Shown here one piece after another: positions 294 to 40,229 of a stretch of 55,392 nucleotides of DNA. This stretch comes from Mariniflexile sp. AS56 (GTDB taxonomy: Bacteria > Bacteroidota > Bacteroidia > Flavobacteriales > Flavobacteriaceae), in the NCBI RefSeq assembly GCF_030552475.1, contig NZ_JAUPED010000019.1, forward strand, positions 1 through 55,392, in the 5' to 3' direction. Each line of letters opens with the position of its first letter. The stretch's first letter is position 1. The position numbers and the translations under genes are program-made. The notes beneath the pieces were generated by a model, which saw nothing but the letters and a program-made list of their open reading frames with translations, did not search any database and was not told where the DNA came from.

Positions 294-632
294 TTATTCT
301 TCATTTTTGTCTCCACTAGGATAATAAAGTTCAAGTTCATGTTCGAGTTCAGTGACAGTTTCATCTTTAAAATTAATTCTAACGTATATAATAAAAGTAC
401 CCCAGCCTGAAGCTTTAAGTTTGAATTTATTTTCTCTTGTATTTATTATTCGTACTGGGTTAGGGAAGGTGTAATGTAAATTATAAATTACATTCTCAAT
501 TTTGTTAAGACCACTTTCACTGGAGTCAATCCAAATGCTCCAATCCCAATAATCATCGTCCTTATAGTGATAATCCTGTTTTACCCTATATTCCTCTTTA
601 GACCGGTGTATTTTGACAGTTTTAATTTGCAT
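294..632 (-). CDS. Stand-alone prokaryotic YEATS-like (pYEATS) protein
   Basis: About 112 residues. The core fits the YEATS-type beta-sandwich pattern as found in bacteria: a WSIWIDSS strand near residues 31-38, then a I-x-x-V-x-Y-x-L strand, the FPNPVR turn, K-F-K-L-K, the SGWGTF motif, a VRINFKD strand and a final LEHELELYYP strand. YEATS domains in eukaryotes read acylated lysines; the bacterial versions are known as parts of conflict systems and their ligand is not settled, so the role here is inferred. I use the ATG at 632, which lies one base after the stop of the upstream TIR-like gene; a longer frame from 659 would overlap that gene by 26 bases. The one-base spacing implies one mRNA. 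There is no signal peptide or membrane segment, so it should be cytoplasmic. It is the last gene before the window's left edge on this strand. Confidence 0.75.
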   Translation of the reverse strand: MQIKTVKIHRSKEEYRVKQDYHYKDDDYWDWSIWIDSSESGLNKIENVIYNLHYTFPNPVRIINTRENKFKLKASGWGTFIIYVRINFKDETVTELEHELELYYPSGDKNEE

Positions 633-633
633 A

Positions 634-1335
634 TTAGTTTTCTTTTTGAAGCTGTACATCCATTAATCCAATAGAGAAAAAACCAGAACTCCAAGTAATA
701 CCATTTGGTCCAGTTATCTTAATATCTATTTGAGCCTCTTCGCTAGGAATTTTTCTAACTATAATACCAAGTTCTCGTTGTCTAAGCTTCTCAAGTTTGG
801 TTTCTTCTTCTTCATAAAACTTCCCTTTATAAAGAAATCGATATAAGCACTTGGTATCTCTACTATTAAGGTGTGGTTTAATTTCATCTGTAAAGTCGGA
901 AGGTAAAAGTATAAAGGCTTTATGGGTTAATTTTGATTTTTCCTTACTGATAAATTTAGCAATTTCTAGCATTACCTTCGTTCTGTCATCAAAATCTAAT
1001 CTTTGCAAATGACCAAGAATTCCATTTTGTGTATTTACTCCGTTTTCTCTAATTTCAAATACAGCTTTATCTAGTCCTAGTGCTAAAGTTAGTTCTTCTA
1101 TTACCCATCTATGTGTCGAATAATGTCCATTGGCGTCAACAGGCCCTCTCCTAGTCAAAAAACCTATGCAGGCATCACTATTTGATATTCTGTCTTTAAC
1201 TCCAACTGATAACTGCTCTCCCTGCATGTCTTCTCCTGTTGATACCTCACAGCCTAATTCTTCAATAAATGGAATGATGATCTCACTTATCCAATTATCA
1301 TTGTCATTATATCCAAAGCCGACAAATACTTTCAT
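634..1335 (-). CDS. TIR-like domain protein
   Basis: A 233-residue soluble protein. Residues 1-130 look like a flavodoxin/TIR-type fold: a first strand KVFVGFGY, a helix ending in GCEVSTGEDM, then VKDRISNSDACIGFLTRR, where the glutamate/aspartate-rich loop and the D-A-C-I-G-F-L strand match the usual pattern of TIR-like and nucleotide-deoxyribosyltransferase-like effectors, and WVIEELTLAL with a conserved-looking glutamate. Residues 130-233 are an unassigned tail that ends in a beta-rich stretch (DIKITGPNGITW). Such proteins generally bind or cleave NAD-like nucleotides; that activity is inference here. It is translated immediately ahead of the pYEATS gene. What it senses is not visible. Confidence 0.6.
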   Translation of the reverse strand: MKVFVGFGYNDNDNWISEIIIPFIEELGCEVSTGEDMQGEQLSVGVKDRISNSDACIGFLTRRGPVDANGHYSTHRWVIEELTLALGLDKAVFEIRENGVNTQNGILGHLQRLDFDDRTKVMLEIAKFISKEKSKLTHKAFILLPSDFTDEIKPHLNSRDTKCLYRFLYKGKFYEEEETKLEKLRQRELGIIVRKIPSEEAQIDIKITGPNGITWSSGFFSIGLMDVQLQKEN

Positions 1336-1496
1336 ATTATTTCGTTTATATTTTTGTTGTCATGTTTTGCGACCTTATTAAAAAATAACTGCTATGATTA
1401 CAGTAATATTTCTGACATATTAAATATCGCCTTTGTCAATATTCATTCTTAATTTATATAGCCTTTATTTAGTACGTGGCAGTTTTGTTTATAATA

Positions 1497-3287
1497 TTAC
1501 TGCGGGTTATTTATCGGGATACCTGGTAAATTAAATGGTAAGTTAATTCCAAATGACCAATACGGCGTATCTAGGGTTACATTATAATTAATGCCAAGAC
1601 TTAAAATATCTTTAAAGGCAGTTAGCATAAAGCCTGCACCAAATTCTGGTGTACCATCTGTATTAAAATCGGGAGTAGACACGGCTAAGCCAAATCCCAA
1701 ATCAATAAAGTCATTGTATAATTTAGAGTTACGCGAACCAATTTTTAATAATAAAGCAGCTGTAGGTGCATATAAAAAGCGTTTGTCGGTTACAGGTGTG
1801 AAGCCTTTTTCATTAAAAGAATCAGCCATAATAATACCAACTACGGTTTCAGAACGCAAGCCTATTAATTGCATGGTCATTTGACGTGATTCGATGGTCT
1901 CATTTTTTACAGCCGATGCCTGAATAGTGGGATCAATAGCGGTTTCTTTTTGCGGCAGTCTTAAAACTAAAACAACTTCTAGTTCATCACCTTTCTGTCT
2001 TGGTCCTGATCGTAATAATTTAATATAACCCGTACTTGGCAGATCATTTAGGGTGAATTTATCGATTTCGGTACCAATCTCATCATTATCGTTAAATCTA
2101 TCGTGTTGATTTTTTAGAATGCTTAAGGCTTGTGTGAAGCCATTAATTTCTTTTGAGACTGTATTGTAACAATCAGAGTAAGTTTCGCTTAACATAGAAA
2201 CCTGGGATTTTATAGTAACAAATGCAGTTGTTGTTTTTTTAAACTTAGCAAAAATAATGTCTATATTATCTACACTTTTCGCTAATGTATTGGTTTGGGT
2301 AATAATTTCAAAGGGAGTGTCTATCTTCCAGTCTGCAATGTCCTTAGAAACTATACTTACTAGGGATGTTAAATCATTAATTTCAGTTATCAAAGCCTCT
2401 ACATCTTCTTTTAATGCGGTTTTTATAGTACTTCTTAAATTTGTGCTATTATTGAAATTTTGAATCTCTGATTTTAGGTTCACTATACAGGAAAGATCTG
2501 GTAATTTTGATAACAGAGCAGCTTTAAAACTAGCGAAATATTTTGGGGCCTCTTTATTATAAGCCTCTGCTCTTTTTTGAAGTTCTTGAAGTTGTTTCGA
2601 TTGTTTTTGTGACAAAGTAGTTACCCAGCGAGGTATACTATAAATTTCTCTTTCATTTATGATATCAAAATTCTCAATATGCACCCGATTTTTTCCTAAG
2701 TCGTTATAAACATAAGCAATCATGCTAACTTTAAAAGATTTACCAGTTGCATTGGCAAGATTCTGCTTGATGAGACTTAAATCTTTGTTGAAATTACTTA
2801 GAATATAGACTTCTTTTTTTAATCCTGAATTTGGGTTGCTACTTCGTGGTCCGTAATTTACTCTCCATTCTTCAAATAGGGCATTGGCCTGATAACGGAG
2901 ACCTTCATTGTTAGGGTCTAATAATGATTTGTAAAAGGCGTCTAAGTCTTCGTAAAATGACTTCTTATCGTCCGCATTTAAGGTTTGAAGTTGAAGCCGT
3001 TTTAATAAAGTTTCTTGATTTGTTAGGACTTTTTCTAAGGCGTCGATACGTTCTTGAAAATCCAATTGGTCATTAAAATCGGAATGGTTTGAACGTAACT
3101 TTTTTATAAGTTCGGACTTAGAAATCTTAATTTCAAGAGAACTGTTAATATCAATAATTTGAGCACTATTAATTTTTACAGTATCTACCCTTTTACTTTC
3201 TTTTTCAATAATGGTCAATACTTGTCCATACCCTAAAAAGAGGCTACAAAAAAGAACTAAAAAACTAAGTAAATAACGTTTTCTCAT
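1497..3287 (-). CDS. Exported protein with coiled coil and outer-membrane-like C-terminus, unknown family
   Basis: About 596 residues, starting at the ATG at 3287 (a TTG two codons earlier is less likely). The N-terminus MRKRYLLSFLVLFCSLFLG followed by YGQ is a clear Sec signal peptide. Residues about 70-250 and 270-390 are heptad-like and helical (runs such as QERIDALEKVL and LQELQKRAEAYNKE), which suggests coiled coils. The last 110 residues alternate polar and hydrophobic residues with many glycines (FGLAVST, FGAGFMLT, SLGINYNV, SFGINLPF), as in outer-membrane beta strands, and the protein ends in NPQ rather than a T9SS domain. I do not recognise a family. It begins 23 bases after the small unknown gene at 3316-3720 and probably shares its transcript. 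An exported protein among TIR, patatin and STAND genes is unusual and could be the surface part of a system. Confidence 0.65.
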   Translation of the reverse strand: MRKRYLLSFLVLFCSLFLGYGQVLTIIEKESKRVDTVKINSAQIIDINSSLEIKISKSELIKKLRSNHSDFNDQLDFQERIDALEKVLTNQETLLKRLQLQTLNADDKKSFYEDLDAFYKSLLDPNNEGLRYQANALFEEWRVNYGPRSSNPNSGLKKEVYILSNFNKDLSLIKQNLANATGKSFKVSMIAYVYNDLGKNRVHIENFDIINEREIYSIPRWVTTLSQKQSKQLQELQKRAEAYNKEAPKYFASFKAALLSKLPDLSCIVNLKSEIQNFNNSTNLRSTIKTALKEDVEALITEINDLTSLVSIVSKDIADWKIDTPFEIITQTNTLAKSVDNIDIIFAKFKKTTTAFVTIKSQVSMLSETYSDCYNTVSKEINGFTQALSILKNQHDRFNDNDEIGTEIDKFTLNDLPSTGYIKLLRSGPRQKGDELEVVLVLRLPQKETAIDPTIQASAVKNETIESRQMTMQLIGLRSETVVGIIMADSFNEKGFTPVTDKRFLYAPTAALLLKIGSRNSKLYNDFIDLGFGLAVSTPDFNTDGTPEFGAGFMLTAFKDILSLGINYNVTLDTPYWSFGINLPFNLPGIPINNPQ

Positions 3288-3315
3288 GGTCAATTAGTTT
3301 TGTGGTTATCGGTTA

Positions 3316-3720
3316 TCAAATGCTCGCTTTTTCAGCTTCAACGAAAAGACTTTCAAGTCGTGTAAAGTCCATTTCGCCGTTTTTATGGATTCTTGAAAGT
3401 GCCTTTCGGTTTGGTCGTGTCAAGCAAAATGTTTTAATTTCTTCGTAAGGGGTACCGTCTTGAATAATTTGAGCTTCTATTAATATAGATTGCAGCTGGG
3501 GTTTAAGAACCGTATGGTTTTTTATCCACATAACCCAACGATTCTCGTTAGTAGGTGAGGTGTCTGTGAGTTCATCAGCTAGATTAACACCTTTTTTTAT
3601 AGATTCAGAATCACCTAAGATGACCATTAAAATCTTATCACTTTGGGTAAGTTCTTGATACATTTGTTGGGCAAGAACATCATCGTTTAATGGGATTTCG
3701 GTCGTTTTTAATAGAGGCAT
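3316..3720 (-). CDS. Small unknown protein preceding the exported protein
   Basis: A 134-residue, mostly helical, soluble protein starting at ATG 3720. It has no signal peptide, membrane segment or motif that I recognise. The first half (LAQQMYQELTQSDKILMVI) looks like an alpha/beta unit, the second half is charged and helical. It ends 29 bases before the start of the exported protein on the same strand, so the two are likely co-transcribed. In size and position it could be an adaptor or effector-associated domain, but nothing in the sequence proves this. Confidence 0.55.
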   Translation of the reverse strand: MPLLKTTEIPLNDDVLAQQMYQELTQSDKILMVILGDSESIKKGVNLADELTDTSPTNENRWVMWIKNHTVLKPQLQSILIEAQIIQDGTPYEEIKTFCLTRPNRKALSRIHKNGEMDFTRLESLFVEAEKASI

Positions 3721-3980
3721 GTTTGTATGGTTTTAGCATAAATTATTAATAACTTCAAAAGGAAGTCGCCATTTATAGATTTCAAAGGATTAAGAAGTCT
3801 ATGTAATTTGCTATTAAAAAGAATACTTAGAGAGATACTAAGTGTATTAAAGATACATATTTTTTTTCAAAAAGTTATTATACTGAAAAAATTTATGCAG
3901 TGTTATTATGAAAAGTAATACTTACGTATGATGAGATTTTATTATTTTAAGACTAAACTAATTATGCATTATTTTTCTAG

Positions 3981-4091
3981 TTGAAAGATGCCGTTCCTTT
4001 AATTTATCAGGGTTATGCTCATCTTGAAATCAACGAAGAAACCAATTTTATTGAATTTCCAGCAGTTGAATTACTTGTAGACATATCTTGA
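3981..4091 (+). pseudogene. Possible C-terminal relic of a decayed gene
   Basis: Thirty-six open codons with no start, directly after a TAG stop. They read like a genuine protein tail: VPLIYQGYAHLEINEETN, then FIEFPAVELLVDIS and a stop. The run sits in a 432-base gap between two genes on the opposite strand. I could not name the parent family. The rest of this gap (3721-3980 and 4092-4152) shows nothing else; the part near 3900 probably holds the promoter of the gene at 3720. Confidence 0.3.
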
Positions 4092-4152
4092 AAATAAGTC
4101 ATTGAATTAACCTCATTTAATATCGCAATCATTTTAACGTTTATTCTAAAAA

Positions 4153-5286
4153 CTAATCAAAATGTGATTTTAAAACACTGTTGGAAGCTGCAACTCCTAT
4201 GTCATAAAGTTCTTGTCTGTTTTCAGCATTACTCATTTCAATTAGACTTTCTACATCTTTACTATTGAATGTTTTTCCTAAGCCTAATCCATTTAAATCA
4301 TTTTCGGTAATAGGAAAGTTATATCGTAAATATTTAAGTAGTGCCTTACCTCCTATAAAATCATCCTTTAAAGATTCGATTTCCATGTCAATATATTGCG
4401 CTGTTGGTGAGTTAGAAAGCCATTGTAAAAGAATTTGGTTTTGCCAACTGGCATCTTGCATCAACATATCGGGAACATTTGTTGCCCAAGTTTTTAACCA
4501 AGCTTCCTCAATTTCACTTGTTTGTTTTTTAAATACACTGTAACCTGTACCTACAGAAACTATGGTTAAATTATCTTCACCCATATCCCATCTAAATGGG
4601 AAACCTTTTAAGGTAGCCACCATCAATAAGGTAAGGGCAGGGTTGTTGGCCATACTAACGCCTCCATCTACAAAGGCTGCCCTTTGTCCATCACCAACAT
4701 CAATCATTTGTGGCGCAAAATAAGTAGGGGCGGCACTGCTAGCTCTTACGGCTTGCCAAAGGGCTATGTTTTTATTCTTACCCATATTGGTATCATAAAA
4801 TTTCCCTTTTGGATGATTAATAATGGGCCAAACACTATTGGTGTCGGCTCTTTTTGCAACAATACAAAGGCCTGTTTTTATTTCATCACTTTCTAATGTT
4901 ATGTCTCCAAAAGCACCCTTTAAACTTTGCTCCAATGCTTTGTAATCGTATCCTGCTTTTAAAAATTTCCATGTTTCCAAAGGATTCCAGAAACTTCTTT
5001 TTTTACCAAAAATTTTGCCACCTAAGTCCATATAGAGATCTACAATCTCATCAACCGATTTTCCTACAGCTAAAGCAGCGGCAATAATAGAACCTGTGGA
5101 TGTGCCCCCAATTAAGTCAAAATGGTCACAAAGCAAATAGTCCTTACCATGTTTTTCGCGTAAAATGGTTTCAATTTTTTTTAAATAGCCTAAGGTTAAT
5201 GCGCCTCTAATTCCCCCACCATCTAAGGAAAGTATGTTTTTAGAGCCAAAATTAGGATCTAGGTGTTCTTGGAATGTTTTTTTCAT
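4153..5286 (-). CDS. Patatin-like phospholipase
   Basis: A 377-residue protein with all the patatin signatures: the oxyanion-hole loop DGGGIRG at residues 22-28, the nucleophile elbow GGTSTGS with Ser63, and the second catalytic residue in DGGVSMANNP (Asp207). Members are Ser-Asp hydrolases that remove acyl chains from phospholipids. There is no signal peptide, so it acts from the cytoplasm, as do the membrane-degrading patatin effectors (CapV type) of antiphage systems. It starts 11 bases after the stop of the TIR-like/TPR gene at 5298-6584, so the two form an operon in which that protein is translated first. No cyclic-nucleotide synthase lies nearby, so if this is an immune effector its trigger must be something other than a locally encoded second messenger. 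A housekeeping lipid role is the alternative. Confidence 0.88.
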   Translation of the reverse strand: MKKTFQEHLDPNFGSKNILSLDGGGIRGALTLGYLKKIETILREKHGKDYLLCDHFDLIGGTSTGSIIAAALAVGKSVDEIVDLYMDLGGKIFGKKRSFWNPLETWKFLKAGYDYKALEQSLKGAFGDITLESDEIKTGLCIVAKRADTNSVWPIINHPKGKFYDTNMGKNKNIALWQAVRASSAAPTYFAPQMIDVGDGQRAAFVDGGVSMANNPALTLLMVATLKGFPFRWDMGEDNLTIVSVGTGYSVFKKQTSEIEEAWLKTWATNVPDMLMQDASWQNQILLQWLSNSPTAQYIDMEIESLKDDFIGGKALLKYLRYNFPITENDLNGLGLGKTFNSKDVESLIEMSNAENRQELYDIGVAASNSVLKSHFD

Positions 5287-5297
5287 TTAAGTTTTCA

Positions 5298-6584
5298 TTA
5301 ACGGGTTTGCAATACATTAATAGCTTCAATTTTTTGTTTTTGTTCTTGGTATGAGCTCATAGCGAAGGTGTCATTTGCGGCTTTAGCCATGTCTTGTGCT
5401 TTGTTCTCATACGTGCTCATTTTTTCATTATTTGCTTTGTAATTGTAGGCTTCAGCAATGGTAAGCAGAATCCAAATGGCATCTTGTTTTTCATTAAAAT
5501 CAGGTTCAAGTTCCAATTTCAGTGCAATTTCTAACACATTATTTCGAATGTAGTCTGCTTTCAACTTAATGTCTTCCCAATCTTTATGTTGTGTTTTAAG
5601 TAACTCTGTTTTTTTGTAGAGCATAAAGGCCGCGTTGATGCCATTGTAGTAATCTTGTTTGAGGAGAAACCCTTTTTCATATGAATTAATAGCAGCATCT
5701 AAATAGCTGATGTTGTCTGTTAATTCATAAAGTCTTTTGTTTATTGCACCCGTTAAGCCTAGAACCTCAGTGTCTTGACTTTGTTGTGGGTCTAGTTCTT
5801 CCATGATAATTTTCGCATTAACCAGGGCTTCTAGTTCATTCGGATTTTTAGATTTGTAAGTACACAACGCCTGTCGTGAAATAATATAGGGTAAGCTGTC
5901 TTTCAAAGTCATATTTTCCAAAGCGTATTCTTTAGATTTACTAAATAATTTGAGAGCTGTTATAAAGTCTTTTTTGTTTTTTGCTTCTTCAGCACTTTCG
6001 ATTAATTCAGAAAAAGACATTTTATTAGATTCGGACGCTTCAATATTTGAAACTGCATTCATTTTTAAGCTGTTATTAAGTTCTTCTTGTAGAAAGGTGA
6101 AAACGGGGCTGTCATTTATTCTAGGAGTCTGGTTTAATACACCATCTATAATTTTGGTAAGATGGGCTCTAAATCGCTCTACTTCTTTATATGGGATACC
6201 TTCTTCCGAATGTGCATATTGGTGTATCACAAAATGTCCAACATCAAAAGGAATACTTCCCATTTGTTCTTTTTCACAAATCATGATGGTATGATGTGGT
6301 TTTAAAGCATGTCTAACACCAAGTTCCCACATGACATTGGCGTTTAGTGTAGAAATATCAACCAAGGCAATATCTGCGTTTTTAATTTCCTGAAGCATGA
6401 GCTTATCTATGCTTCCAGAAAGGTTTTTATCGATGGCTCTGTAACATGAAATGCCTAAACTTTCAAACACTGGTTTTATTAAGACGGAATAAGTTTCATC
6501 TAAATCTAAAATACGAAGTTTTCCGTTGGCATGACTTGGCTTTTTACCAAACCCGATTATTACAAAACAAGTTAAATCTTCCAT
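5298..6584 (-). CDS. TIR/deoxyribosyltransferase-like domain fused to a TPR-like (DUF4071-like) tail
   Basis: A 428-residue soluble protein. Residues 1-145 form a Rossmann-like domain with the features shared by TIR-like and nucleoside 2-deoxyribosyltransferase-like domains: CFVIIGFG at the start, a helix-loop GISCYRAID, the strand NADIALVDIS, and VMWELGVRHAL, whose glutamate would be the catalytic one. Residues about 195-420 are helical and repeat-like (EEAKNKKDFITALKLFSKSKEYA, ISYLDAAINSYEKGF), in the manner of the TPR-type TRAFs-binding/DUF4071 region found with such N-termini. Expected role: a sensor or scaffold arm coupled to a nucleotide-acting domain. It lies directly upstream of the patatin gene in the same operon, which suggests that it controls or complements that enzyme. 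Domain naming is by eye only. Confidence 0.65.
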   Translation of the reverse strand: MEDLTCFVIIGFGKKPSHANGKLRILDLDETYSVLIKPVFESLGISCYRAIDKNLSGSIDKLMLQEIKNADIALVDISTLNANVMWELGVRHALKPHHTIMICEKEQMGSIPFDVGHFVIHQYAHSEEGIPYKEVERFRAHLTKIIDGVLNQTPRINDSPVFTFLQEELNNSLKMNAVSNIEASESNKMSFSELIESAEEAKNKKDFITALKLFSKSKEYALENMTLKDSLPYIISRQALCTYKSKNPNELEALVNAKIIMEELDPQQSQDTEVLGLTGAINKRLYELTDNISYLDAAINSYEKGFLLKQDYYNGINAAFMLYKKTELLKTQHKDWEDIKLKADYIRNNVLEIALKLELEPDFNEKQDAIWILLTIAEAYNYKANNEKMSTYENKAQDMAKAANDTFAMSSYQEQKQKIEAINVLQTR

Positions 6585-6827
6585 GTTTATTGGTTTTGTG
6601 GTATTACTTATCCTTTATTAATGATATGTATGCTAAAGCATTGTAAAATAAACGGCTATCCAATTCATTTTTAATGCTGATGTTAGCTCTGTTGTAGGGG
6701 GAGAAATTATTTGATTTTACTAATTTAGTAAAAAAAGGTTTACGGTTTATATTGAAAACCTGAATTTTTTAAAATGAATTATCTATTTATTTCAATTTTA
6801 TAATATGAAATTTGATTATAAGTGAAC

Positions 6828-7835
6828 TTATTGTATTTTTAATACTCTTCCTTGATTGGTAGCTATTTGTTGAACTCTTTTTAGTAATTCTTGTTTTAAT
6901 ACTTTTTGAGATTCCCAAAATAGAATAGGAAAATCTTTTGCGTCGAAATGAATTATTGTTTCTTTTCTAGCCGTGACTATGATAGGTTTTTCAAGGGCAT
7001 CAGCATAACCTAATTCATAATAGACATTTGGTCTTTCAAAAGTTAAATCTACAATAACGAAAGCGCTGTTCCTTATATTATTCAACATTTCAGGTGTGAT
7101 TTTTTTAATATCTGTTATTTCGTCCATTCTCTGGCAGTTATATTTTGGAGAAAAGCGATTACAGACAGTTTTAAACGAATCAAAAGCATCTTCTAAATTT
7201 GGGTCATCGTTAAAAGACATAATAACAAAAGCATTTTTTGAAAGGTTAATTCTTTCAGCAAGACTTAAAACAGTTTTCGCCAAGTCAATGTCTTCAATAG
7301 TAGTTTGAGATAGATCCTCGAAGTCACCAATACTAATGTTACTAGACATTGATTTTTTTAAATTAATTTTCTCTTCTCTATAAATTTCTTTTGATGATCC
7401 TCCAAATTTAACAAGAGGTAAAATTGGTTTTTTTGCGATTCTCGCCCAATTAGCAGCCCTTTGAACACCATTAAAACCGCAAACGATTATTACAACGTCT
7501 GCTATATCTATTGGTTCTGGAATTCTAAGGTTGGAACCTCCTAACTCCCAATCCTTTAGTTCGGAACTTCTTATTTTACCAAAATTATGGGATGGTTTTT
7601 TTCCATCGGCAACGTACCCAATTATCCTGTCTTTAGAATCGTCATTAGTATATTTTAAAGCATTAAAAGCACTTTCTGCCAACACTGCATCAAATTCCGA
7701 TACACATGCATTAATAAGAGTATGTCCTTGTTTTATTATTTCTTCACCCAAAGTTTTAGTAAAATCAACTGTTTTCGAATATAATTTTGGATCTTCTTTA
7801 CTATCGTAGAACCCTCCTGCTACTAGAATTTTCAT
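6828..7835 (-). CDS. SLOG-like plus TIR/deoxyribosyltransferase-like fusion protein
   Basis: A 335-residue two-domain protein. Residues 1-150 look like a SLOG/LOG-type nucleotide-binding Rossmann domain: MKILVAGGF at the start, DVVIIVCGFNGVQRAANWA in place of the GGxxGT loop, then KPILPLVKFGG. Residues about 205-325 form a second alpha/beta domain beginning NAFVIMSFNDD, with SAFVIVDLTFERPNVYYELG, whose glutamate is in the place expected for the catalytic residue of TIR-like and deoxyribosyltransferase-like folds. The ATG overlaps the last codon of the TIR gene at 7832-8644 by four bases, so the two are translationally coupled. SLOG domains are predicted sensors of NAD/ADP-ribose-type nucleotides, as in Thoeris ThsA-like and TRPM-like proteins; pairing with a TIR protein makes a nucleotide-signal circuit plausible. 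Confidence 0.65.
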   Translation of the reverse strand: MKILVAGGFYDSKEDPKLYSKTVDFTKTLGEEIIKQGHTLINACVSEFDAVLAESAFNALKYTNDDSKDRIIGYVADGKKPSHNFGKIRSSELKDWELGGSNLRIPEPIDIADVVIIVCGFNGVQRAANWARIAKKPILPLVKFGGSSKEIYREEKINLKKSMSSNISIGDFEDLSQTTIEDIDLAKTVLSLAERINLSKNAFVIMSFNDDPNLEDAFDSFKTVCNRFSPKYNCQRMDEITDIKKITPEMLNNIRNSAFVIVDLTFERPNVYYELGYADALEKPIIVTARKETIIHFDAKDFPILFWESQKVLKQELLKRVQQIATNQGRVLKIQ

Positions 7836-8644
7836 ATGTTTAGTTTAATTTTTGTTACCAATTTGTTTTGTCTTTTGAAATAATCCCAATTTACTATGAA
7901 ATCTTGATTTACTAAATTTGAATTTACATCATTTGCAGATTTAGGATGAAATAGAAACTTAACTTGAGGATGATTATCAAAAAATCTCTTAAAAATTTCT
8001 TGGCTTATTTTAGTACCTGCTGAAGTAGAAGAGTTTTCAATAATGTCTATTGAATCTAAATTTTTAGTATCAATAATTCCTATTACTTCTTTATCGCTTC
8101 TTAAAGCAAAATCAATTTCTTTTGCAGACCATACAGAATTGATTAAATTTTTGGAAATAAGAACACAAAAAAAAGGTAGCTTTTCTATCGCATTCTTTAC
8201 TGATTGATTAATGTGGCTATGTTTTAAAATTTCAATCTCTGCTAACCAAGTAAATATATTTTGGTCAATAAGTTTTTTTGATATTTCAATTGCTAATTTA
8301 GAATCCTTAAAACTATGAGATAAAAACATGTTTTTATTTTGCACCCGATCCAGTTCTTCAATTAAAATCTGTTCATCTTGTCTATAAATATCCAAAATCG
8401 CCTTTTGTTTGATTCGATTTACACTTCCCCATAAAACATCAAGGTTATTTTGTGATGGTAGTGAAGAGAATCTAATGTCACAATTTATTTTTTTTTGAAA
8501 ATACTTAAGTAGAACATCATCTAATTCTAAATGATTTAAATGTTGAATGTTTAGTTTGTCTAATAAAGTTTTGGAGGTAGTCCATTTGTAGTTCTTCTCG
8601 TCATGTAGATAATCTTTTACTTGTGAAATTATTTTATCAGACAT
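7832..8644 (-). CDS. TIR domain protein
   Basis: About 270 residues from the ATG at 8644 (an upstream TTG at 8668 is possible). The first 100 residues are charged and helical and may be a winged-helix or oligomerisation domain. A TIR domain begins near residue 105: NMFLSHSFKDSKLA, the helix ending NIFTWLAEIEIL, then LPFFCVLISKNLINSVWSAKE and VIGIID. The glutamates in W-L-A-E-I-E are candidates for the catalytic residue of NADase TIRs. It is followed by the SLOG fusion (4-base overlap) and preceded by a GH19 gene 67 bases away, all on one strand. Known TIR proteins of antiphage systems make signalling molecules from NAD or deplete NAD; which applies here is not visible. Confidence 0.8.
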   Translation of the reverse strand: MSDKIISQVKDYLHDEKNYKWTTSKTLLDKLNIQHLNHLELDDVLLKYFQKKINCDIRFSSLPSQNNLDVLWGSVNRIKQKAILDIYRQDEQILIEELDRVQNKNMFLSHSFKDSKLAIEISKKLIDQNIFTWLAEIEILKHSHINQSVKNAIEKLPFFCVLISKNLINSVWSAKEIDFALRSDKEVIGIIDTKNLDSIDIIENSSTSAGTKISQEIFKRFFDNHPQVKFLFHPKSANDVNSNLVNQDFIVNWDYFKRQNKLVTKIKLNI

Positions 8645-8711
8645 TTTCTGCTTAATATTCAGATCCAACTGTTTGAATTTTCATCATTACTTGTTTAATT
8701 CTTTTTATTTC

Positions 8712-9338
8712 TCAGGCACCCAAAACCTCATAAAGTCGTTTAAATGAATCAAGGTAATGTTGACGATGAAGTAGGCCATTAGTGCCACCGTTTATTCTTT
8801 TGGTTACCATATGAATATCATCAGCATCAGCGTAAACGTTAATGTTGTTCTTTTTCCAAAACCAGCAGGCAGAAGTAAGTGCTAATTCTGGATCAAGAAT
8901 CGAATCTGGGTTGTTCACACAGTCAACACCATGATCGTGACCAAATTTTTGATAATTCTCTTTACCAGTAAGCTGTATTAAACCTCGACCTCTAAATTTC
9001 CAACCGTCACCACTTTCTTCACTGCCATTTCCCATTCTGTTAGCATAAACCCTATTCGCAATCTTTTCAGGTTTACGTGCATAGTCTCGAGCTATTTCAT
9101 TTGTTTTAAAATACTTCCCAAAAACATTTCTTAGGCCTTCAGCGGAATAATTTAGATTTTCTTGAGTATACTTAAGACCACCACTTTCATGTGCAAGTTG
9201 AGATAGAAAGTGAGCTTTTCTGAGCGGGGTATCTATACCAAAGTTAGGTAACACTGTATCTACATGTGGTAGATAGGTTACTGCTTTTTCCCAGTTCATG
9301 TCGGGAATAATTGTCTGCATTTGCTCTGTTGTTACCAT
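8712..9338 (-). CDS. GH19 chitinase/lysozyme-like hydrolase
   Basis: A 208-residue protein of the glycoside hydrolase 19 family as found in phage endolysins and bacterial lysozyme-like proteins. Seen: the catalytic-Glu motif SQLAHESGGL, ENLNYSAEGLRNVFGKYF, the FRGRGLIQLTGKENYQKFG block and the aromatic ACWFWKKNNIN near the end. There is no signal peptide, so export would need a holin or lysis, as for phage endolysins. It is the first gene of the operon with the TIR and SLOG genes, starts 234 bases from the divergent gene at 9573, and may have come from a phage or contractile-tail cluster. A role in peptidoglycan or chitin-like polymer cleavage is well supported; why it sits among signalling genes is not. 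Confidence 0.85.
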   Translation of the reverse strand: MVTTEQMQTIIPDMNWEKAVTYLPHVDTVLPNFGIDTPLRKAHFLSQLAHESGGLKYTQENLNYSAEGLRNVFGKYFKTNEIARDYARKPEKIANRVYANRMGNGSEESGDGWKFRGRGLIQLTGKENYQKFGHDHGVDCVNNPDSILDPELALTSACWFWKKNNINVYADADDIHMVTKRINGGTNGLLHRQHYLDSFKRLYEVLGA

Positions 9339-9572
9339 AAGTTTTGTTTTTAGTTGTTTTTTTTGATGGCCGCTTAAAGATAACGAAATTTCCCATTATT
9401 AAATAGTTTTGTAAGTTTAAATTTCATGAGTGCTTTAAATATAAATCATTGAGGTTTAGGTTAATGATTAACGATGTGTAGGTGTATTTCTATTTAGTTT
9501 ATAGAAAAGAAGAAAAGAAATACGATTATAAAGCCGATAAAAAAGTTTATATTTAGTAAATAGAATTATTGT

Positions 9573-11255
9573 ATGAAAACAATCCGAATTTTTATAGCTT
9601 CTTCATCTGAATTGAAAGAGGACCGAGATCAGTTTCGAATGTTTATTAGTAAGGAAAATGATAGGTTACATACCAAAGGTATCTATTTGGAAATTGTACA
9701 ATGGGAAAGTTTTCTTGATGCCATATCCGATACTAGACTTCAGGATGAATATAATAATGCTATTAGTACTTGCGATATTGTTCTCTGTCTATTCTTTACA
9801 AAAGTAGGTAAGTATTCCTCTGAAGAATTTGATACGGCCTATCAGGTTTTTAAAGACAAAGGGAAACCAAAAATATGGACCTATTTTAAAAATGCACAGA
9901 TAAATACAGGTTCCATTACCGATGAAATAAATACGCTCTTAACTTTTAAGAAAAAGATTGGAGGCCTTGGACATTTTTATACGGAATACACTAATATTGA
10001 TAACCTTATAAATCAATACAGATCACAATTAGATAAATATCTTCCTCCATTTGAAACGATTGTAGTTAATCCCCCCAAAACACCTCCCGAAGAACCCATA
10101 GAAAATACCTTTAACGATTTACTCACTAAAAAATTAATTCAAGCTATCAAACCTTACGATAGAAAAGCTAACGATTTTTTAGAAACTTATGGGGATTGGG
10201 AAACAAATATCGATTTAAAACCAACAGTAAAGCGTATTATTATTGCTGGTTATGTGGGAGTTGTGGGAATTCAACTGCGTAAATTGATGTCGATTGGCGA
10301 GGAAGACTTTTTAGATAATAAAATGAAACGGTATTTGGAGAATTGTCAATTAACAGCGGTAAGAGCTTTTCAACTTATTTGTTATGCGCTCATCTCAACT
10401 TTATGGGATAATCAGTTAAATAATAAAGTCAAACTTTCAAATGAGCAAAGTACTGTTTTAATTAAATTTTTTAAAAATGCAACAGATGAAAGTATAAATG
10501 GTTTTTCGAACTTGTTAAGAGCGCTAATAGAAACTTTTCTTGATAATAAATTAGAACTCCCTATTGCCCAATTGATGGAGCTTTTGCCCAAATTGCAATC
10601 TGGTAGTGATTTGTTAAAATCTTGTGATTATTTAACATCAATAACAGAATTGCTGCATGGAGCTTCTTATACCGCAAAAGATTGTACTGATGCCGAAAAA
10701 AACCTAGCGATTTTGTTGGAGAACCTAAATTTCTTGGCAGAATATAAAATGATTTCTATAAAGGACATTGATTATAATTTTCAAAGGAATGATGCAGTAG
10801 GTTTATATCTGCATCACTATACTTTATTGGAAGGTGATACGCAAGCCAACAATAATAACAGCGGGAAAATTAGAAAGGACACCACGCCAGTATCTTCATA
10901 TGCGGTTTTATTATTTAAAGAAAACTACCAGCAAAACATAAATATGGTGCCTTTCATTATTGATTATAATGGATTGGCAGATTCTGGTGGATCAAAAATT
11001 TGTTTTTATTCCTTTTGCAATACGTTTGATGATATGAACCTTAATTATAATTTTATTGAGGACAATAGTAAAGTAACCATCAAAAAATCGGGTAATTTAA
11101 AGCCTGATGATAATGATGTTCGTGCCATTAATGGTTGGTTGTCAAATAAAGAAAATAGGAAGGATATGAATTTTGATAATATGTTTGACTTGTTCTACAA
11201 AGCAAAAAAAGCTCTAGTAGGTATTGAAGAAGATACCACAATAGATGAATTTTAA
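9573..11255 (+). CDS. DUF4062-like (TIR-like) N-terminal domain protein
   Basis: A 560-residue soluble protein. Residues 1-115 match the DUF4062/TIR-like pattern: TIRIFIASSSELKEDRDQF, the YLEIVQWESF strand, the STCDIVLCLFFTKVG strand, and SSEEFDTAY, with a glutamate in the catalytic position, then PKIWTYFKNA. Residues 150-560 are not recognised; they are mainly helical in 190-420 and more beta-like at the end (NMVPFIIDYNG, ICFYSFCNTF). It is the first gene of a two-gene operon: the STAND NTPase follows 27 bases later. DUF4062 proteins usually occur as N-terminal effector or adaptor domains of NLR-like proteins; here the effector-like and NTPase parts are on separate chains. Confidence 0.65.
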   Translation: MKTIRIFIASSSELKEDRDQFRMFISKENDRLHTKGIYLEIVQWESFLDAISDTRLQDEYNNAISTCDIVLCLFFTKVGKYSSEEFDTAYQVFKDKGKPKIWTYFKNAQINTGSITDEINTLLTFKKKIGGLGHFYTEYTNIDNLINQYRSQLDKYLPPFETIVVNPPKTPPEEPIENTFNDLLTKKLIQAIKPYDRKANDFLETYGDWETNIDLKPTVKRIIIAGYVGVVGIQLRKLMSIGEEDFLDNKMKRYLENCQLTAVRAFQLICYALISTLWDNQLNNKVKLSNEQSTVLIKFFKNATDESINGFSNLLRALIETFLDNKLELPIAQLMELLPKLQSGSDLLKSCDYLTSITELLHGASYTAKDCTDAEKNLAILLENLNFLAEYKMISIKDIDYNFQRNDAVGLYLHHYTLLEGDTQANNNNSGKIRKDTTPVSSYAVLLFKENYQQNINMVPFIIDYNGLADSGGSKICFYSFCNTFDDMNLNYNFIEDNSKVTIKKSGNLKPDDNDVRAINGWLSNKENRKDMNFDNMFDLFYKAKKALVGIEEDTTIDEF

Positions 11256-11282
11256 GTTGGTTTTTATTAATAATTGATTGTT

Positions 11283-13253
11283 ATGAAAAAATATCCCTTT
11301 AAATTTTTAGACTCTTATAAAAGGGAAGATAGGGGTGTGTTTTTTGGGCGCGACGAAGAGATTAACGCGCTTTACGAAATGGTTTTTCAGTCGTCAATTA
11401 TTCTTATCTATGGAGCGTCTGGTACTGGTAAAACAAGCTTAATTAATTGTGGGTTAGCTGGTAAGTTCCAACCTCACGATTGGCTAGCTTTGATGATTCG
11501 TAGAGGGAGTAACATTAATGAATCTCTAGAAAAAGCACTAAATGAAGCCGGAGGAAAAGTAAAAGATTCAGCTGTTGGAATGGATTGGTTTGATAACTGG
11601 ACTGATGAATCTGAAAAAAATACAACTCGCTTAAGTCCCATAGGGAAATCTATTAATGCGGTTTATGAAAAGTCGTTTAAACCTATTTATTTAATTTTTG
11701 ATCAGTTTGAAGAACTTTTTATACTTGGTTCCATTTCAGAACAAGAATTGTTTATCAAAACAGTTCAAGATATTCTACAATCTCAACAACCAGTAAAACT
11801 AATTTTTTCTATAAGGGAAGAATACCTTGGGCATTTATCAGGGTTCGAACGGGCTGTACCTCAACTACTACGGAAGAAGTTACGTATAGAACCTATGAAT
11901 CTTGAAAAAGTAAAACAGGTTATTATAGGTGCTGCAGCGTATAAAGATTCTAATGTTAGTTTGCAATTGGGAGAATCAGATTTGGTTGCCGAGGGGATTT
12001 TTGACAAAATAAAAGGAGAAGAAAAATCATTAACCATTCAATTACCATTTCTTCAGGTTTTTTTGGACAAATTTTATCTCAAAATTACAGGCGATGAAAG
12101 TCGGACAGCCGACGCCAAGTTTAATATGCAATCCCTTAACGAAATGGGAGAAATTGGCGATGTCTTAATCGATTTCTTGGAAGAGCAAGTTTCTGGAATT
12201 TCGAATAAACTTAAAGTAAAACATCCTGTTTTAACACCGGATATGATTTGGAAAATCTTATCACCATTTTCAACATTGGAAGGCACTAAGGATCCTATTA
12301 GTAAACAAGATTTGTATGAACGGTTGCCTAATACAGACATAGCTTTAATTGATTATGTAGTAGGGGCTTTCATTAATAGCCGAATACTTCGATATAACGA
12401 AAGTAGTGATAGGTTCGAAATTGCACATGATGCCCTTGCTAAACCCATTGCGGAGAAACGTAGTGTTGAAGAAACAGCCCAATTGGAAATAAAACGACTT
12501 ATAAAAAGTCAGGTAGCTGTAAAAGAGCAGGGGCGGGAATACTTTACCGAAAAGCAATTATTGTTCATTGAACCTTACCTAGAGAAGTATTCTATAAGTG
12601 AAGAAGAAAAGGAATGGATTTCTAAAAGTAAGTCTCATGTTACTAAAGAGAAGCTTAAAAATATAGACCAGCAATATGCAGAATTGCAGAAAAAGAGACG
12701 AATAAACATACTTTCTTTTACTATTTTGGGACTTTTAATTTTAATAGCTTCCACTGTTTCTTTAGGAATGCTAGCAAGAAAAAAAGGGATTATTGCAGAG
12801 CAAGAAAAAGTTAAATCCAAAATTGCTGAAGATAGAACAAAGGAGTTATTAAAATTAGTGTTGCAGGGTAGAGGGGAACAATATAAAAATCAAAACGATA
12901 GTTTAATTGTTGAAAGGCTACGGATTGAGCAAACTTACCCGATAGATAGTTTGATTGTTCCAAGAGCATCTGTAAGTGCTTCTAATAAAGGTAGTAATAA
13001 CCGGAATTTCATGCTTTGGATTGATGTGCCGTCATTCAGAAAGTATGAAATTAAAGAAGTTAATTACAAGCTTTGTAAAGGGTTTGTGGATCGTTTAAGA
13101 GTTTCAAATGAACCATCGTCTTCTTTTTCCATAGGGTATCTTGGTTATGGCTATTGTCCCACCGTAGATATTGATGTTGTTCTTAAAACAGGAGATACCA
13201 TTAGAAAATCGTTTTCATTTGAAGATTTTTTAAATAAAAACCCATTGCACTAA
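11283..13253 (+). CDS. STAND-type NTPase with membrane anchor and YEATS-like C-terminus
   Basis: About 656 residues from ATG 11283 (a TTG three codons earlier is possible). The start KYPFKFLDSYKREDRGVFFG followed by RDEE is typical of nSTAND1-type NTPases. Walker A is GASGTGKT at residues 44-51, Walker B YLIFDQFEEL with Asp140, followed by LIFSIREEYLG and a helical winged-helix region with AHDALAKPIAEKR. A single membrane span lies near residues 474-497 (SFTILGLLILIASTVSLGML), flanked by basic coiled-coil segments. The C-terminal 75 residues (from about 574) have a strand pattern close to pYEATS: FMLWIDVPSF, EIKEVNYKL, LGYGYCP, VDIDVVLKTGD. So the NTPase should be cytoplasmic and the C-terminal sensor possibly on the other side of the membrane. 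STAND proteins oligomerise on ligand binding and switch on a partner; the DUF4062-like protein just upstream is the obvious partner. Confidence 0.78.
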   Translation: MKKYPFKFLDSYKREDRGVFFGRDEEINALYEMVFQSSIILIYGASGTGKTSLINCGLAGKFQPHDWLALMIRRGSNINESLEKALNEAGGKVKDSAVGMDWFDNWTDESEKNTTRLSPIGKSINAVYEKSFKPIYLIFDQFEELFILGSISEQELFIKTVQDILQSQQPVKLIFSIREEYLGHLSGFERAVPQLLRKKLRIEPMNLEKVKQVIIGAAAYKDSNVSLQLGESDLVAEGIFDKIKGEEKSLTIQLPFLQVFLDKFYLKITGDESRTADAKFNMQSLNEMGEIGDVLIDFLEEQVSGISNKLKVKHPVLTPDMIWKILSPFSTLEGTKDPISKQDLYERLPNTDIALIDYVVGAFINSRILRYNESSDRFEIAHDALAKPIAEKRSVEETAQLEIKRLIKSQVAVKEQGREYFTEKQLLFIEPYLEKYSISEEEKEWISKSKSHVTKEKLKNIDQQYAELQKKRRINILSFTILGLLILIASTVSLGMLARKKGIIAEQEKVKSKIAEDRTKELLKLVLQGRGEQYKNQNDSLIVERLRIEQTYPIDSLIVPRASVSASNKGSNNRNFMLWIDVPSFRKYEIKEVNYKLCKGFVDRLRVSNEPSSSFSIGYLGYGYCPTVDIDVVLKTGDTIRKSFSFEDFLNKNPLH

Positions 13254-13285
13254 TAATACAATCTGTGTTAAATTTTATTATACAC

Positions 13286-14875
13286 TTAGTTCTTAATAAG
13301 GTTACTTAACCCTGCATTTTTTAAATAATCTTTCACTGTTAATTTTCTGCTTAAATCAAGCATAGGTACTTCACCAATATCGTTTTGATGAAAATGATAA
13401 ACCAATACAGTAAGGTTTTTATCAGGCAGAGTTTTGTTTTTTAGGTCATTTGGAAGTGATGGATGGCTGTTTTTTATCAAATCTTGTGCGCCACCTGGTG
13501 ATAGTCCAACATGACTTAGCGTAACTTCTTTTGAAGCAATTACGAGTGCAAACATTCTAAATTCAGACTCTGTTTCGAAGAAAAGAGATTTAAATATTTC
13601 ATAATATGAAAATTTGCCGTCTCCTCCCAAGTTTTTCACCCAACGTTTATCACCTTCAATAGGAGAGCCATTTATGTTATATTTCTCTAAACTTGTTGTC
13701 ATGGCATATCCGTCCAAGTCATAATAATAGTGTAATTTATTCTTATAGCCTGCACTGATAAATAGGTTGCTTATATATGTGTCTAGCTTCCCTAAGGTTG
13801 TCAATTCTGGCTTGAATTTATTAAATGTCTCGTTAGTAGAAGGTAAGGGAGCGGGATTGGGGAAAAAATATTGTTTGATTTCAATAGGCACCGCTCCGGA
13901 CTCAATGCGAGAGAGAACACCACTGGGACCACGTCCTATTTTCCTAAATGGGAATTTTGTTTGCAGTTCGTTATACAAGACTTTACATACTTTAGGATTC
14001 AATTCTTCCTTAATAAAAGCATCTTCTCTAACTTTTGCATTGCTATCAATAATATCATTATAAAAACTATCATATGAATCATACAACTGTTCTACATCAA
14101 AGGGTGTTAAATCTTTGGTGTACTGGTCTGAGGCCATATATTTAAGTTGAATATATCTAGCAATTAAATCCAGTTTCATATCCAGTTCATAAGTTTGATC
14201 GATTGATGAATAGGGTTTCAATACACTATGAGTACGATTTCCGATAATTGATAGGTTTAATGACAAATCATAAAGCGATGCATAATGTAAAAGTCTTCTA
14301 AAATCGTATTTTTTAGAACGCTTTGAGGCATAAAATATTTTTTTAAAATCTGGATAAACATCATTGTTAAAGCGTGGAGTGAATTCATTTTTTAAATCCT
14401 GAATATTCCTGCCTAATTGGCTATAGGTGTTTCCGTCGAATTTGATGAGGTCATAAAATACATTTTCTTCCCAAATATCATAATTGGTGGATTTATAGTG
14501 CTCTATAGCTTTTTTTAAAGTATCATGCCACTCTATTAAAATACTTCTTTGGATAGTATTTGGTGAATTTCTAAAAAGTAATTTCACCTCATTAAAGTAT
14601 AATAATGAATAGGTGAAATTATAGAGTGTGGCGTTTTTTCTGGTAAAAAGCGAGTCTATTATCGTTTCCAATTCACTTGTTTCAAAAGGGAGTATTTTAG
14701 AAAGTCGTTCATCACTTAATTTATCAAAATAATCTTTGGTTAAAGATAAGTTTATAAAAGCTTGAGCAAGAGTCATAGAATCATTCGGGAATACTTGCGG
14801 AGATTCTTGCGCATTTAATTGAGATGAACCAATTAAAAAAAAACAATAGGCCATTAATAGTTTGTAAGTTTTCAT
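13286..14875 (-). CDS. Exported protein of unknown family
   Basis: A 529-residue protein with a signal peptide (MKTYKLLMAYCFFLIGSSQL followed by NAQ, a signal peptidase I-type end). The mature part is rich in Tyr, Asp, Lys and Phe, with helical stretches in the first 300 residues (YFDKLSDERLSKILPFETSE, LYDLSLNLSIIG) and no motif that I recognise. The C-terminus does not look like a T9SS sorting domain. It is convergent with the STAND gene, 32 bases between stops. It is the second large exported unknown in the TIR/STAND/patatin region, besides the one at 1497-3287; whether it belongs to those systems is open. Confidence 0.6.
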   Translation of the reverse strand: MKTYKLLMAYCFFLIGSSQLNAQESPQVFPNDSMTLAQAFINLSLTKDYFDKLSDERLSKILPFETSELETIIDSLFTRKNATLYNFTYSLLYFNEVKLLFRNSPNTIQRSILIEWHDTLKKAIEHYKSTNYDIWEENVFYDLIKFDGNTYSQLGRNIQDLKNEFTPRFNNDVYPDFKKIFYASKRSKKYDFRRLLHYASLYDLSLNLSIIGNRTHSVLKPYSSIDQTYELDMKLDLIARYIQLKYMASDQYTKDLTPFDVEQLYDSYDSFYNDIIDSNAKVREDAFIKEELNPKVCKVLYNELQTKFPFRKIGRGPSGVLSRIESGAVPIEIKQYFFPNPAPLPSTNETFNKFKPELTTLGKLDTYISNLFISAGYKNKLHYYYDLDGYAMTTSLEKYNINGSPIEGDKRWVKNLGGDGKFSYYEIFKSLFFETESEFRMFALVIASKEVTLSHVGLSPGGAQDLIKNSHPSLPNDLKNKTLPDKNLTVLVYHFHQNDIGEVPMLDLSRKLTVKDYLKNAGLSNLIKN

Positions 14876-40014: not shown

Positions 40015-40229
40015 CCTATTTTTCCATTAATAATTAAAATAAAACCTTAAATGTCATTTTAAAACCTAATAATCCAAAAACACAAAAAAACCCATTTTTC
40101 CATAAATAATAAAAATAAAACCCATTTTTCCAAAAACAAACCCGTTTTTCCATTATATTTGAAATAACTGTTTTTCACCTAAACCCATGAATACGAATCG
40201 TTTTTCACATAAAATAACCGTTTTTCACG
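40015..40229 (+). repeat. Degenerate tandem repeat (about 77-bp period) upstream of and inside the Fic gene start
   Basis: The 12-base word CCCATTTTTCCA or variants occurs at 40015, 40091, 40121, 40141, 40168, 40198 and 40218. Spacings of 30, 20 and 27 bases recur, so the unit is about 77 bp. In the first units the word is CCCATTTTTCCA; around the gene start it is CYGTTTTTCAC, and the last two copies are inside the coding region, where they encode FSH and FHG. The remaining part of the gap (39826-40014) shows nothing. Promoter or operator iteration, or slippage-driven growth, are both possible. Confidence 0.6.

What the first reader, a model, noticed from the sequence alone, without database searches (positions are those of the whole stretch)
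294..14875. Dense cluster of TIR, SLOG, patatin, STAND and YEATS-like genes without a second-messenger synthase
Within 14.6 kb there are three or four TIR/deoxyribosyltransferase-like domains, a SLOG domain, a patatin, a STAND NTPase, pYEATS-like domains, a GH19 enzyme and two exported unknowns. These classes are known individually from bacterial conflict systems, yet no cGAS/DncV-like gene, reverse transcriptase, restriction enzyme or Cas gene was seen. The combination does not match CBASS, Thoeris or Avs as I know them, so it could be several small systems side by side or one new composite system. The composite idea is inference.
Basis: partly seen in the sequence, partly recalled or inferred. 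Interest (0 to 1): 0.8.

Follow-up and report, generated by a model that had tools for sequence, protein, structure and literature searches.

The report
Two suicide-defence modules, side by side
A marine bacterium carries next to each other what look like two separate self-destruct virus-defence systems, one seemingly pairing a membrane-cutting enzyme with a borrowed phage wall-cutting enzyme and one seemingly spanning the cell membrane with an exported partner, and both remain to be tested.

Summary
The genes are there: 12 genes, five TIR/NDT/DUF4062-type domains, two pYEATS domains (one hidden at the end of the STAND protein). It is not one composite system. (B) 9573-14875, DUF4062 + nSTAND1-TM-pYEATS + exported protein, is a self-contained cassette: the same trio in the same arrangement in 3 of 3 full-length loci found, in otherwise unrelated neighbourhoods. 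(A) On the minus strand a CapV-like patatin and an NDT-TPR-S protein form a second unit: 4 of 4 such Flavobacteriaceae loci opened, plus a Rhizobium and a Rhodococcus plasmid; a TIR gene is near the NDT-TPR-S gene in 17 of 22 loci by BLAST (19 with annotation or reading). In a second genus the TIR/pYEATS pair lies in one run with patatin/NDT-TPR-S. No SMODS-type CD-NTase matched in the genome. Best reading: a TIR makes an NAD-derived signal, TPR-S senses it, patatin opens the membrane; a phage-type wall hydrolase (GH19 here and in a close cassette, N-acetylmuramidase in Rhizobium) may finish lysis. B may be a membrane-spanning STAND alarm driving a DUF4062 NADase. All mechanism is inference. 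Parts are known kinds; the combinations are new variants.

The parts
294..659 (-). g1: stand-alone pYEATS domain protein, 121 aa; overlaps the end of g2 by 26 bases
   Evidence: PF20305 8.9e-24; pYEATS in 4 of 299 family genomes
634..1335 (-). g2: TIR-like N-terminal domain with an unassigned C-terminal part, 233 aa
   Evidence: 2 of 299 family genomes, own included; relative in G129 is TIR_2; fold match to NDT/TIR
1497..3293 (-). g3: protein with a likely signal peptide (by eye), function unknown, 598 aa
   Evidence: relatives at 37-38% in 2 of the 5 other same-genus genomes searched
3316..3720 (-). g4: small protein, 134 aa, directly upstream of g3 here and in two relatives
   Evidence: 31-32% relatives before g3 in G680 and G681, followed there by a 1780-aa protein 33-34% identical to the CHAT/TPR-S-type protein of G129
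4153..5286 (-). g5: patatin-like phospholipase, CapV-like, no TM segment flagged
   Evidence: PF01734 1.7e-35; PADLOC phospholipase effector 8.3e-58; CapV structure 8zr9 9.5e-23; NF041079 2.6e-43, below its cut-off
5298..6584 (-). g6: NDT-like domain fused to TPR-S sensor domain (DUF4071 / TRAFs-binding type)
   Evidence: PF20308 1e-17; E87 invariant in 10 aligned sequences
6828..7835 (-). g7: SLOG-like domain fused to NDT-like domain
   Evidence: weak Pfam hits; PADLOC PDLC00733 8.2e-15 over residues 105-315; no full-length match listed in 298 other family genomes
7832..8668 (-). g8: TIR protein with unassigned N-terminal region; overlaps g7 by 4 bases
   Evidence: TIR_2 2.2e-10; ThsB model 3e-8
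8712..9338 (-). g9: GH19 endolysin-type hydrolase, no TM segment flagged, no signal peptide by reading
   Evidence: PF00182 6.5e-10; 59-60% to Cellulophaga/Olleya phage endolysins; 89% in G209 beside the same patatin module
9573..11255 (+). g10: DUF4062 TIR-like domain plus a long C-terminal region
   Evidence: PF13271 8.9e-4, below cut-off; 65% and 81-82% identical relatives in the same trio
11274..13253 (+). g11: nSTAND1 NTPase, one TM segment, C-terminal pYEATS; likely start ATG at 11283
   Evidence: TM and charges
12708..12764 (+). predicted TM segment of g11 (residues 479-497)
   Evidence: hydropathy 2.39, also in both relatives
13005..13208 (+). pYEATS domain of g11
   Evidence: PF20305 4.6e-15
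13286..14875 (-). g12: protein with likely signal peptide (by eye), no known domain, convergent partner of g10-g11
   Evidence: present in 3 of 3 full-length trio loci; no match in 59 other relatives; dN/dS about 0.25

Best explanation
The region is a stretch of defence island with at least two independent cell-suicide systems. System A (minus strand, core 4153-9338): a TIR enzyme makes an NAD-derived nucleotide on infection; the NDT-TPR-S protein binds or processes it and switches on the CapV-like patatin, which degrades the inner membrane; the cytosolic GH19 endolysin then reaches the wall and completes lysis, as holin and endolysin do for a phage. The TIR/pYEATS pair (294-1335), the g4-g3 pair and the TIR/SLOG-NDT pair are exchangeable input or effector modules on the same strand. 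System B (9573-14875): an exported protein (g12) outside the inner membrane and the membrane-anchored nSTAND1-pYEATS protein form a sensor that, when triggered, assembles and activates the DUF4062 NADase (g10), which depletes NAD. Shown here: the domains, the linkages, signs of purifying selection, a hydrophobic segment. Inferred: defence function, signal chemistry, topology, order of events, lysis.
For: B: same three genes, same arrangement in Pareuzebyella sediminis (65/58/50%) and Subsaximicrobium wynnwilliamsii (82/82/67%), 3 of 3 full-length loci; the DNA match to the latter is nearly exactly the trio (window 9538-14876, 78%). g12: no match in 59 other relatives. Pairwise dN/dS 0.088, 0.081, 0.25 with dS 0.9-1.3. 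A: patatin beside NDT-TPR-S in 4 of 4 Flavobacteriaceae loci opened and on a Rhizobium and a Rhodococcus plasmid; of 22 NDT-TPR-S loci, TIR in 17 by BLAST (19 with annotation or reading), patatin in 6, SLATT in 8. In G129 TIR, pYEATS-TIR, patatin, NDT-TPR-S and SLATT are five same-strand genes with overlaps or gaps under 30 bases. Wall hydrolase in 3 of the 6 patatin loci and 0 of the other 16 by the test used (p 0.013, not independent), of two unrelated types: GH19 (window, G209) and N-acetylmuramidase (Rhizobium). DUF4062 is a reported NADase (PMC13174449).
Against: No function was tested. GH19: the window and G209 copies are one cassette by DNA; of the 6 copies at 61% or more in 299 genomes (own included) 4 sit elsewhere beside another gene; G129, G189 and Rhodococcus patatin loci show none. 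Five other plasmid patatin loci opened lack NDT-TPR-S. The g11 topology is ambiguous in the window copy (4 and 4 positive residues before/after; 7/4 and 5/3 in the relatives); other Bacteroidota pYEATS proteins have one to three segments before the domain, so its side of the membrane varies; the hydropathy script flagged a hydrophobic start of g12 only in Pareuzebyella. The g12 model is unusable (pLDDT 37.6). SLOG and DUF4062 hits are below Pfam cut-offs. G209 has a frame break in its NDT-TPR-S gene. Only two of 299 genomes carry the g2-type gene, so its link to A rests on two cases. Contig L099 holds an 86% identical 77-residue piece of g10 on 3.5 kb without g11 or g12.
Confidence: 0.55

Rival explanations
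1. One composite system: all 12 genes work together.
For: Tight packing; a pYEATS domain in each half; both halves use TIR-type enzymes.
Against: The trio occurs without relatives of the other genes in Subsaximicrobium and at a separate site from the patatin module in Pareuzebyella; opposite strands.
Confidence: 0.05
2. GH19 is a passenger: a phage-derived lysin that landed between two defence systems, and A kills by the patatin alone.
For: Closest named relatives are phage endolysins; 4 of the 6 close copies in 299 genomes lie in other contexts beside a 243-287 aa gene; 3 of 6 patatin loci show no wall hydrolase.
Against: 89% identical GH19 beside the module in another genus, dN/dS about 0.044; an unrelated muramidase beside patatin in the Rhizobium module.
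Confidence: 0.4
3. The TIR/SLOG-NDT pair (6828-8668) is a separate Thoeris-like two-gene system inserted into the patatin module.
For: 4-base overlap, 243-base gap before g6; in G209 the GH19, NDT-TPR-S, patatin block lacks both genes and has another TIR gene upstream; ThsB-model hits.
Against: No full-length g7 relative found elsewhere to show the pair alone; NDT-TPR-S loci usually have a TIR beside them.
Confidence: 0.4
4. The pYEATS end of g11 is cytosolic and g12 is an exported neighbour without a part in signalling; B is an ordinary STAND-NADase pair.
For: Ambiguous charge bias in the window copy; other pYEATS proteins with two segments would have the domain inside.
Against: g12 in 3 of 3 trio loci and no match in 59 relatives; the hydrophobic segment is in all three g11 copies, with more positive residues before than after it in two.
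Confidence: 0.3

Closest known systems
TPR-S / NAD-derived-signal conflict systems predicted by Burroughs and Aravind (J Bacteriol 2020; recalled, paper not held)
   Same: TPR-S domain with TIR and NDT (DrHyd) domains and a threshold-switched effector; caspase-TPR-S proteins with TIR-like neighbours are common in this family
   Different: patatin as effector, a phage-type wall hydrolase, and add-on TIR/pYEATS, g4-g3 and SLOG-NDT pairs; I could not check which of these that paper lists
CBASS with CapV patatin
   Same: g5 is CapV-like by sequence
   Different: no SMODS match in the genome; TIR and NDT-TPR-S in its place
Thoeris
   Same: ThsB-like TIR beside a SLOG-like protein
   Different: no SIR2, macro or caspase effector domain hit; SLOG is fused to an NDT-like domain
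Swarozyc (DUF4062 NADase, PMC13174449)
   Same: DUF4062 N-terminal domain with a long C-terminal region
   Different: partnered with an nSTAND1-pYEATS protein and an exported protein; Swarozyc as described binds the phage portal with its own auxiliary domain
Avs and other STAND defence proteins; membrane-proximal STAND conflict systems (PMC7159879 and PMC10907252, passages)
   Same: STAND NTPase as switch; periplasmic or membrane-near sensor positions were proposed there too
   Different: effector in a separate gene, single TM segment, C-terminal pYEATS, exported partner

Membership tests
TPR-S NAD-signal system | TPR-S domain over curated cut-off | tested here: met
   65 bits against 27.6
TPR-S NAD-signal system | neighbouring NAD-consuming signal enzyme (TIR type) | tested here: met
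   g8 TIR_2; 17 of 22 related loci by BLAST; activity not tested
TPR-S NAD-signal system | TPR-S binds an NAD-derived messenger | not testable with these tools
   needs biochemistry; prediction recalled from the literature
CBASS | CD-NTase (SMODS) | tested here: not met
   0 PF18144 matches in own genome; none among 10 proteins; other CD-NTase models not tried on the genome
CBASS | CapV-type patatin effector | tested here: met
   PADLOC phospholipase effector 8.3e-58, CapV structure 9.5e-23; NF041079 below cut-off
Thoeris | ThsB-type TIR | tested here: met
   g8, ThsB models to 3e-8; not proof of orthology
Thoeris | ThsA effector of a known type (SIR2-SLOG, macro) | tested here: not met
   g7 shows SLOG-like and NDT-like hits only
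Swarozyc | DUF4062 domain | tested here: inconclusive
   19.8 bits against 24.7, but 53.5% over 157 residues to an annotated DUF4062 protein
Swarozyc | portal-binding winged auxiliary domain | not tested
   C-terminal region of g10 was not modelled
Avs-type STAND | effector domain fused to the STAND protein | tested here: not met
   nSTAND1 begins at residue 8 of g11; DUF4062 is a separate gene

The most novel reading that the evidence does not exclude
The island holds two designs not described in the papers I could search: a membrane-spanning STAND alarm in which an exported protein and a periplasmic pYEATS domain report damage outside the inner membrane to a cytosolic DUF4062 NADase, and a TIR-signalled self-lysis pair in which a CapV-like phospholipase plays holin to a captured phage endolysin. 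At least one of the two is real.
Probability: 0.4. Interest if true: 0.8.

Novelty: new variant of a known kind. Interest (0 to 1): 0.6.

Why it matters
Bacterial STAND proteins are mostly studied as cytosolic sensors of phage parts; one that reads the envelope through an exported partner would be closer to animal and plant receptors and would open the question of what phage entry does to the periplasm. A patatin plus endolysin suicide pair would show bacteria using the phage's own exit route, holin then lysin, as a defence, and would explain why wall hydrolases without signal peptides sit in such loci. The linkages give two small cassettes (three and about five genes) that can be cloned and tested directly.

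Tried and rejected
One composite system: rejected by the separate trio loci. Random juxtaposition of single genes: rejected by the recurrent pairs. CBASS with a distant CD-NTase: no SMODS match in the genome (one family only, a 49-contig assembly). A Bacteroidota promoter-type motif (recalled) TANNTTTG was scanned and is not more frequent than chance. Viral-contig scans with the g2, g10, g11 and g12 alignments found no relative; with the NDT-TPR-S alignment they gave 37 loci, of which 3 with a complete NDT-TPR-S gene (L175, L176, L178) entered the tally, and L177 (cut) and 33 others (weaker matches, mostly shorter NDT proteins) did not. Plasmid searches with g2 and g3: none. The g12 structure model was too poor to search, so no fold search was run on it. 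pYEATS loci across 395 Bacteroidota genomes (9 with a match, own included; 8 opened) showed no constant partner by BLAST to the reference proteins and reading. Of six plasmid patatin loci opened, one (Rhodococcus) has NDT-TPR-S and five do not. A DNA search for more patatin-muramidase plasmid modules found only the Rhizobium one. Literature: all ten searches are in the held open library; five papers were seen as passages only, and PMC13174449 as abstract, passages and part 1 of 2 of Results. Passages in PMC12419801 and PMC11204291 held nothing on this combination.

Tally notes: the 22 NDT-TPR-S loci are 4 Flavobacteriaceae, 15 plasmid loci out of 59 plasmid records matched (chosen partly for variety), and 3 viral contigs. 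TIR by BLAST 17 of 22; in seven of the 17 (window, L076, L027, L085, L086, L088, L167) a TIR of the locus itself, known from Pfam, annotation or both, is in the reference set. L161 is added by its annotation and L169 by reading its N-terminus; L087, L165 and L168 (insertion sequence right after the gene) show none. L076 also gave a second weak TIR hit (4e-4) outside the module that I take as false. Wall hydrolases were sought only by similarity to GH19 and the muramidase and by annotation names; contig L175 also has an amidase-like and a holin-like ORF, read by eye, as prophages do. The count of 4 NDT-TPR-S genomes of 299 is a minimum: only the 30 best TPR-S loci plus some others were opened. 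dN/dS values are pairwise, with dS near or above 1.

Full report
What is there. The window is one whole contig of a Flavobacteriaceae-type genome, so it begins at a contig end (the family is inferred from the named relatives). The first 14.9 kb hold twelve genes. Nine lie on the minus strand, in transcription order g9 GH19, g8 TIR, g7 SLOG-NDT, g6 NDT-TPR-S, g5 patatin, g4 small, g3 exported, g2 TIR-like, g1 pYEATS; then g10 DUF4062 and g11 nSTAND1-pYEATS on the plus strand, and g12 exported on the minus strand. From 15.3 kb genes of alginate use follow (an alginate lyase by Pfam, others by reading). Gaps on the minus strand are 43, overlap 4, 243, 11, 432, 22, 161 and overlap 26 bases (coordinates).

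System B. A scan of 84,980 species genomes with the g10 alignment returned 10 loci, 2 of them full length. The other 8 match over 77-195 residues at the DUF4062 end; none shows a g12 relative and only L095 a weak P-loop hit to g11 (5e-4), but several are short contigs, among them L099, 3.5 kb with an 86% identical 77-residue piece. With the window that makes 3 full-length loci, and 3 of 3 have g10, g11 and a convergent g12: Subsaximicrobium at 82/82/67% and Pareuzebyella at 65/58/50% identity. The nucleotide match to Subsaximicrobium runs from 9538 to 14876 of the window in one piece at 78%, nearly exactly the trio. By BLAST to the window and G129 proteins neither neighbourhood has patatin, TPR-S or SLOG genes; Pareuzebyella has a patatin module on another contig. 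g12 has no match in 59 other relatives and only itself in its own genome. All three genes look to be under purifying selection, g12 least. g11 has one hydrophobic segment between nSTAND1 and pYEATS in all three copies; positive residues before/after are 4/4, 7/4 and 5/3. With the signal-peptide-like start of g12 (by eye; the script flagged only the Pareuzebyella copy) this suggests but does not show a periplasmic pYEATS end. In 8 of 8 other Bacteroidota pYEATS proteins opened one to three hydrophobic segments precede the domain; three other family copies, g1 included, have none.

System A. The 30 best TPR-S loci of 299 family genomes are 25 caspase-TPR-S, 2 CHAT-type and 3 NDT-TPR-S by BLAST; G129 has a fourth NDT-TPR-S. 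All 4 NDT-TPR-S loci have a patatin next to them. Full-length relatives lie on plasmids of Proteobacteria, lactobacilli and others and in viral contigs. In 22 loci opened, TIR is near in 17 by BLAST, 19 with annotation or reading, patatin in 6, SLATT in 8. The NDT Glu (E87) is invariant in 10 aligned sequences. Patatin g5 is closest to CapV among solved structures. The reverse is not true of patatins: five other plasmid patatin loci opened have no NDT-TPR-S.

Wall hydrolase. G209, another genus, has TIR, GH19 (89%), NDT-TPR-S (broken frame, 85 and 72%) and patatin (92%) in a row, the same cassette as in the window by DNA without g7 and g8. A Rhizobium leguminosarum plasmid has SLATT, N-acetylmuramidase, patatin, NDT-TPR-S and a gene that is DUF4062-like by BLAST (24%, 3.6e-8; no Pfam DUF4062 hit) in a row. 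So two unrelated phage-type wall hydrolases, neither with a signal peptide by reading, occur with patatin plus NDT-TPR-S: 3 of 6 patatin loci, 0 of 16 others by the limited test used (p 0.013, not independent). Against it, 4 of the 6 GH19 copies at 61% or more in 299 genomes lie apart from such modules, beside a 243-287 aa gene. I hold the lysis-pair idea as plausible, not shown.

Linked pairs. The g2-type gene occurs in 2 of 299 family genomes, and both have patatin/NDT-TPR-S within 5 kb; if independent, both falling among the 4 NDT-TPR-S genomes has chance 1.3e-4, though a shared preference for defence islands would raise this. In G129 the five genes form one tight run. pYEATS occurs in 4 of 299 genomes: window, G129, Pareuzebyella (the g11 relative) and G156, where a membrane protein and no TIR is next to it. 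The g4-g3 pair recurs in two same-genus genomes directly before a 1780-aa protein related to the CHAT/TPR-S type; the window's own genome has such a locus without the pair. I read both pairs as add-ons to TPR-S proteins. g7 has no full-length relative found, so its pairing with g8 rests on the 4-base overlap.

Known background. DUF4062 was reported in 2026 as a TIR-like NADase domain with antiphage activity (PMC13174449: abstract, passages and part 1 of 2 of Results). Passages in PMC7159879 and PMC10907252 place some STAND conflict systems at the membrane or sensors in the periplasm. Passages in PMC9503650 describe TIR, DrHyd and SLOG as one clade of NAD-related enzymes and sensors. TPR-S as a predicted sensor of NAD-derived signals is recalled from a paper not held. 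The listings of searches show no paper that joins DUF4062, nSTAND1 and pYEATS, and that of one search none on a patatin plus endolysin suicide pair; listings are capped and the library is open-access only.

Verdict. Observation confirmed; interpretation partly supported: at least two systems, one with several linked modules. Parts and logic are known kinds; the trio with an exported partner and the patatin plus wall hydrolase are new variants.

Noticed in passing
window 40187-42466: Fic protein (PADLOC candidate PDC-S24, 2.7e-195) directly followed by an HsdR N-terminal fragment of 246 aa matching positions 1-248 of a 976-position model.
   Followed up: partly
window 43505-48046: 1513-aa protein with a Walker-like motif by reading and weak WD40-type hits near its end, possibly another STAND sensor; no PADLOC hit.
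   Followed up: partly
L145, L146, L147, L148: GH19 relatives in four other genera each directly follow, in reading direction, a 243-287 aa gene (similar by eye; the one tested has no Pfam hit), among other genes: a different two-gene unit.
   Followed up: partly
L027 6752-9488, L075 7035-9760: A TIR protein with a weak CHASE2 hit and a TPR protein with a likely signal peptide form a conserved pair (64-69%) divergent from the patatin module in two genera, another hint of envelope sensing.
   Followed up: partly
L040-L067: Caspase-TPR-S proteins are common in this family; 15 of 25 loci opened have a TIR-like ORF within 1.5 kb by N-terminal reading, and one (L048) has a patatin 62% identical to g5.
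   Followed up: partly
L113 5586-7366: N-acetylmuramidase gene (3.5e-61) directly next to, and on the same strand as, the membrane pYEATS gene of genome G500.
   Followed up: partly
L161 4815-5852: Protein DUF4062-like by BLAST to g10 (24%, 3.6e-8), with a weak HEAT hit, directly after the NDT-TPR-S gene of Rhizobium leguminosarum: a possible signal enzyme in place of TIR.
   Followed up: partly
window 3721-4152: 432-base gap between patatin and g4 without a listed ORF of 60 aa; may hold a decayed gene or a promoter.
   Followed up: no
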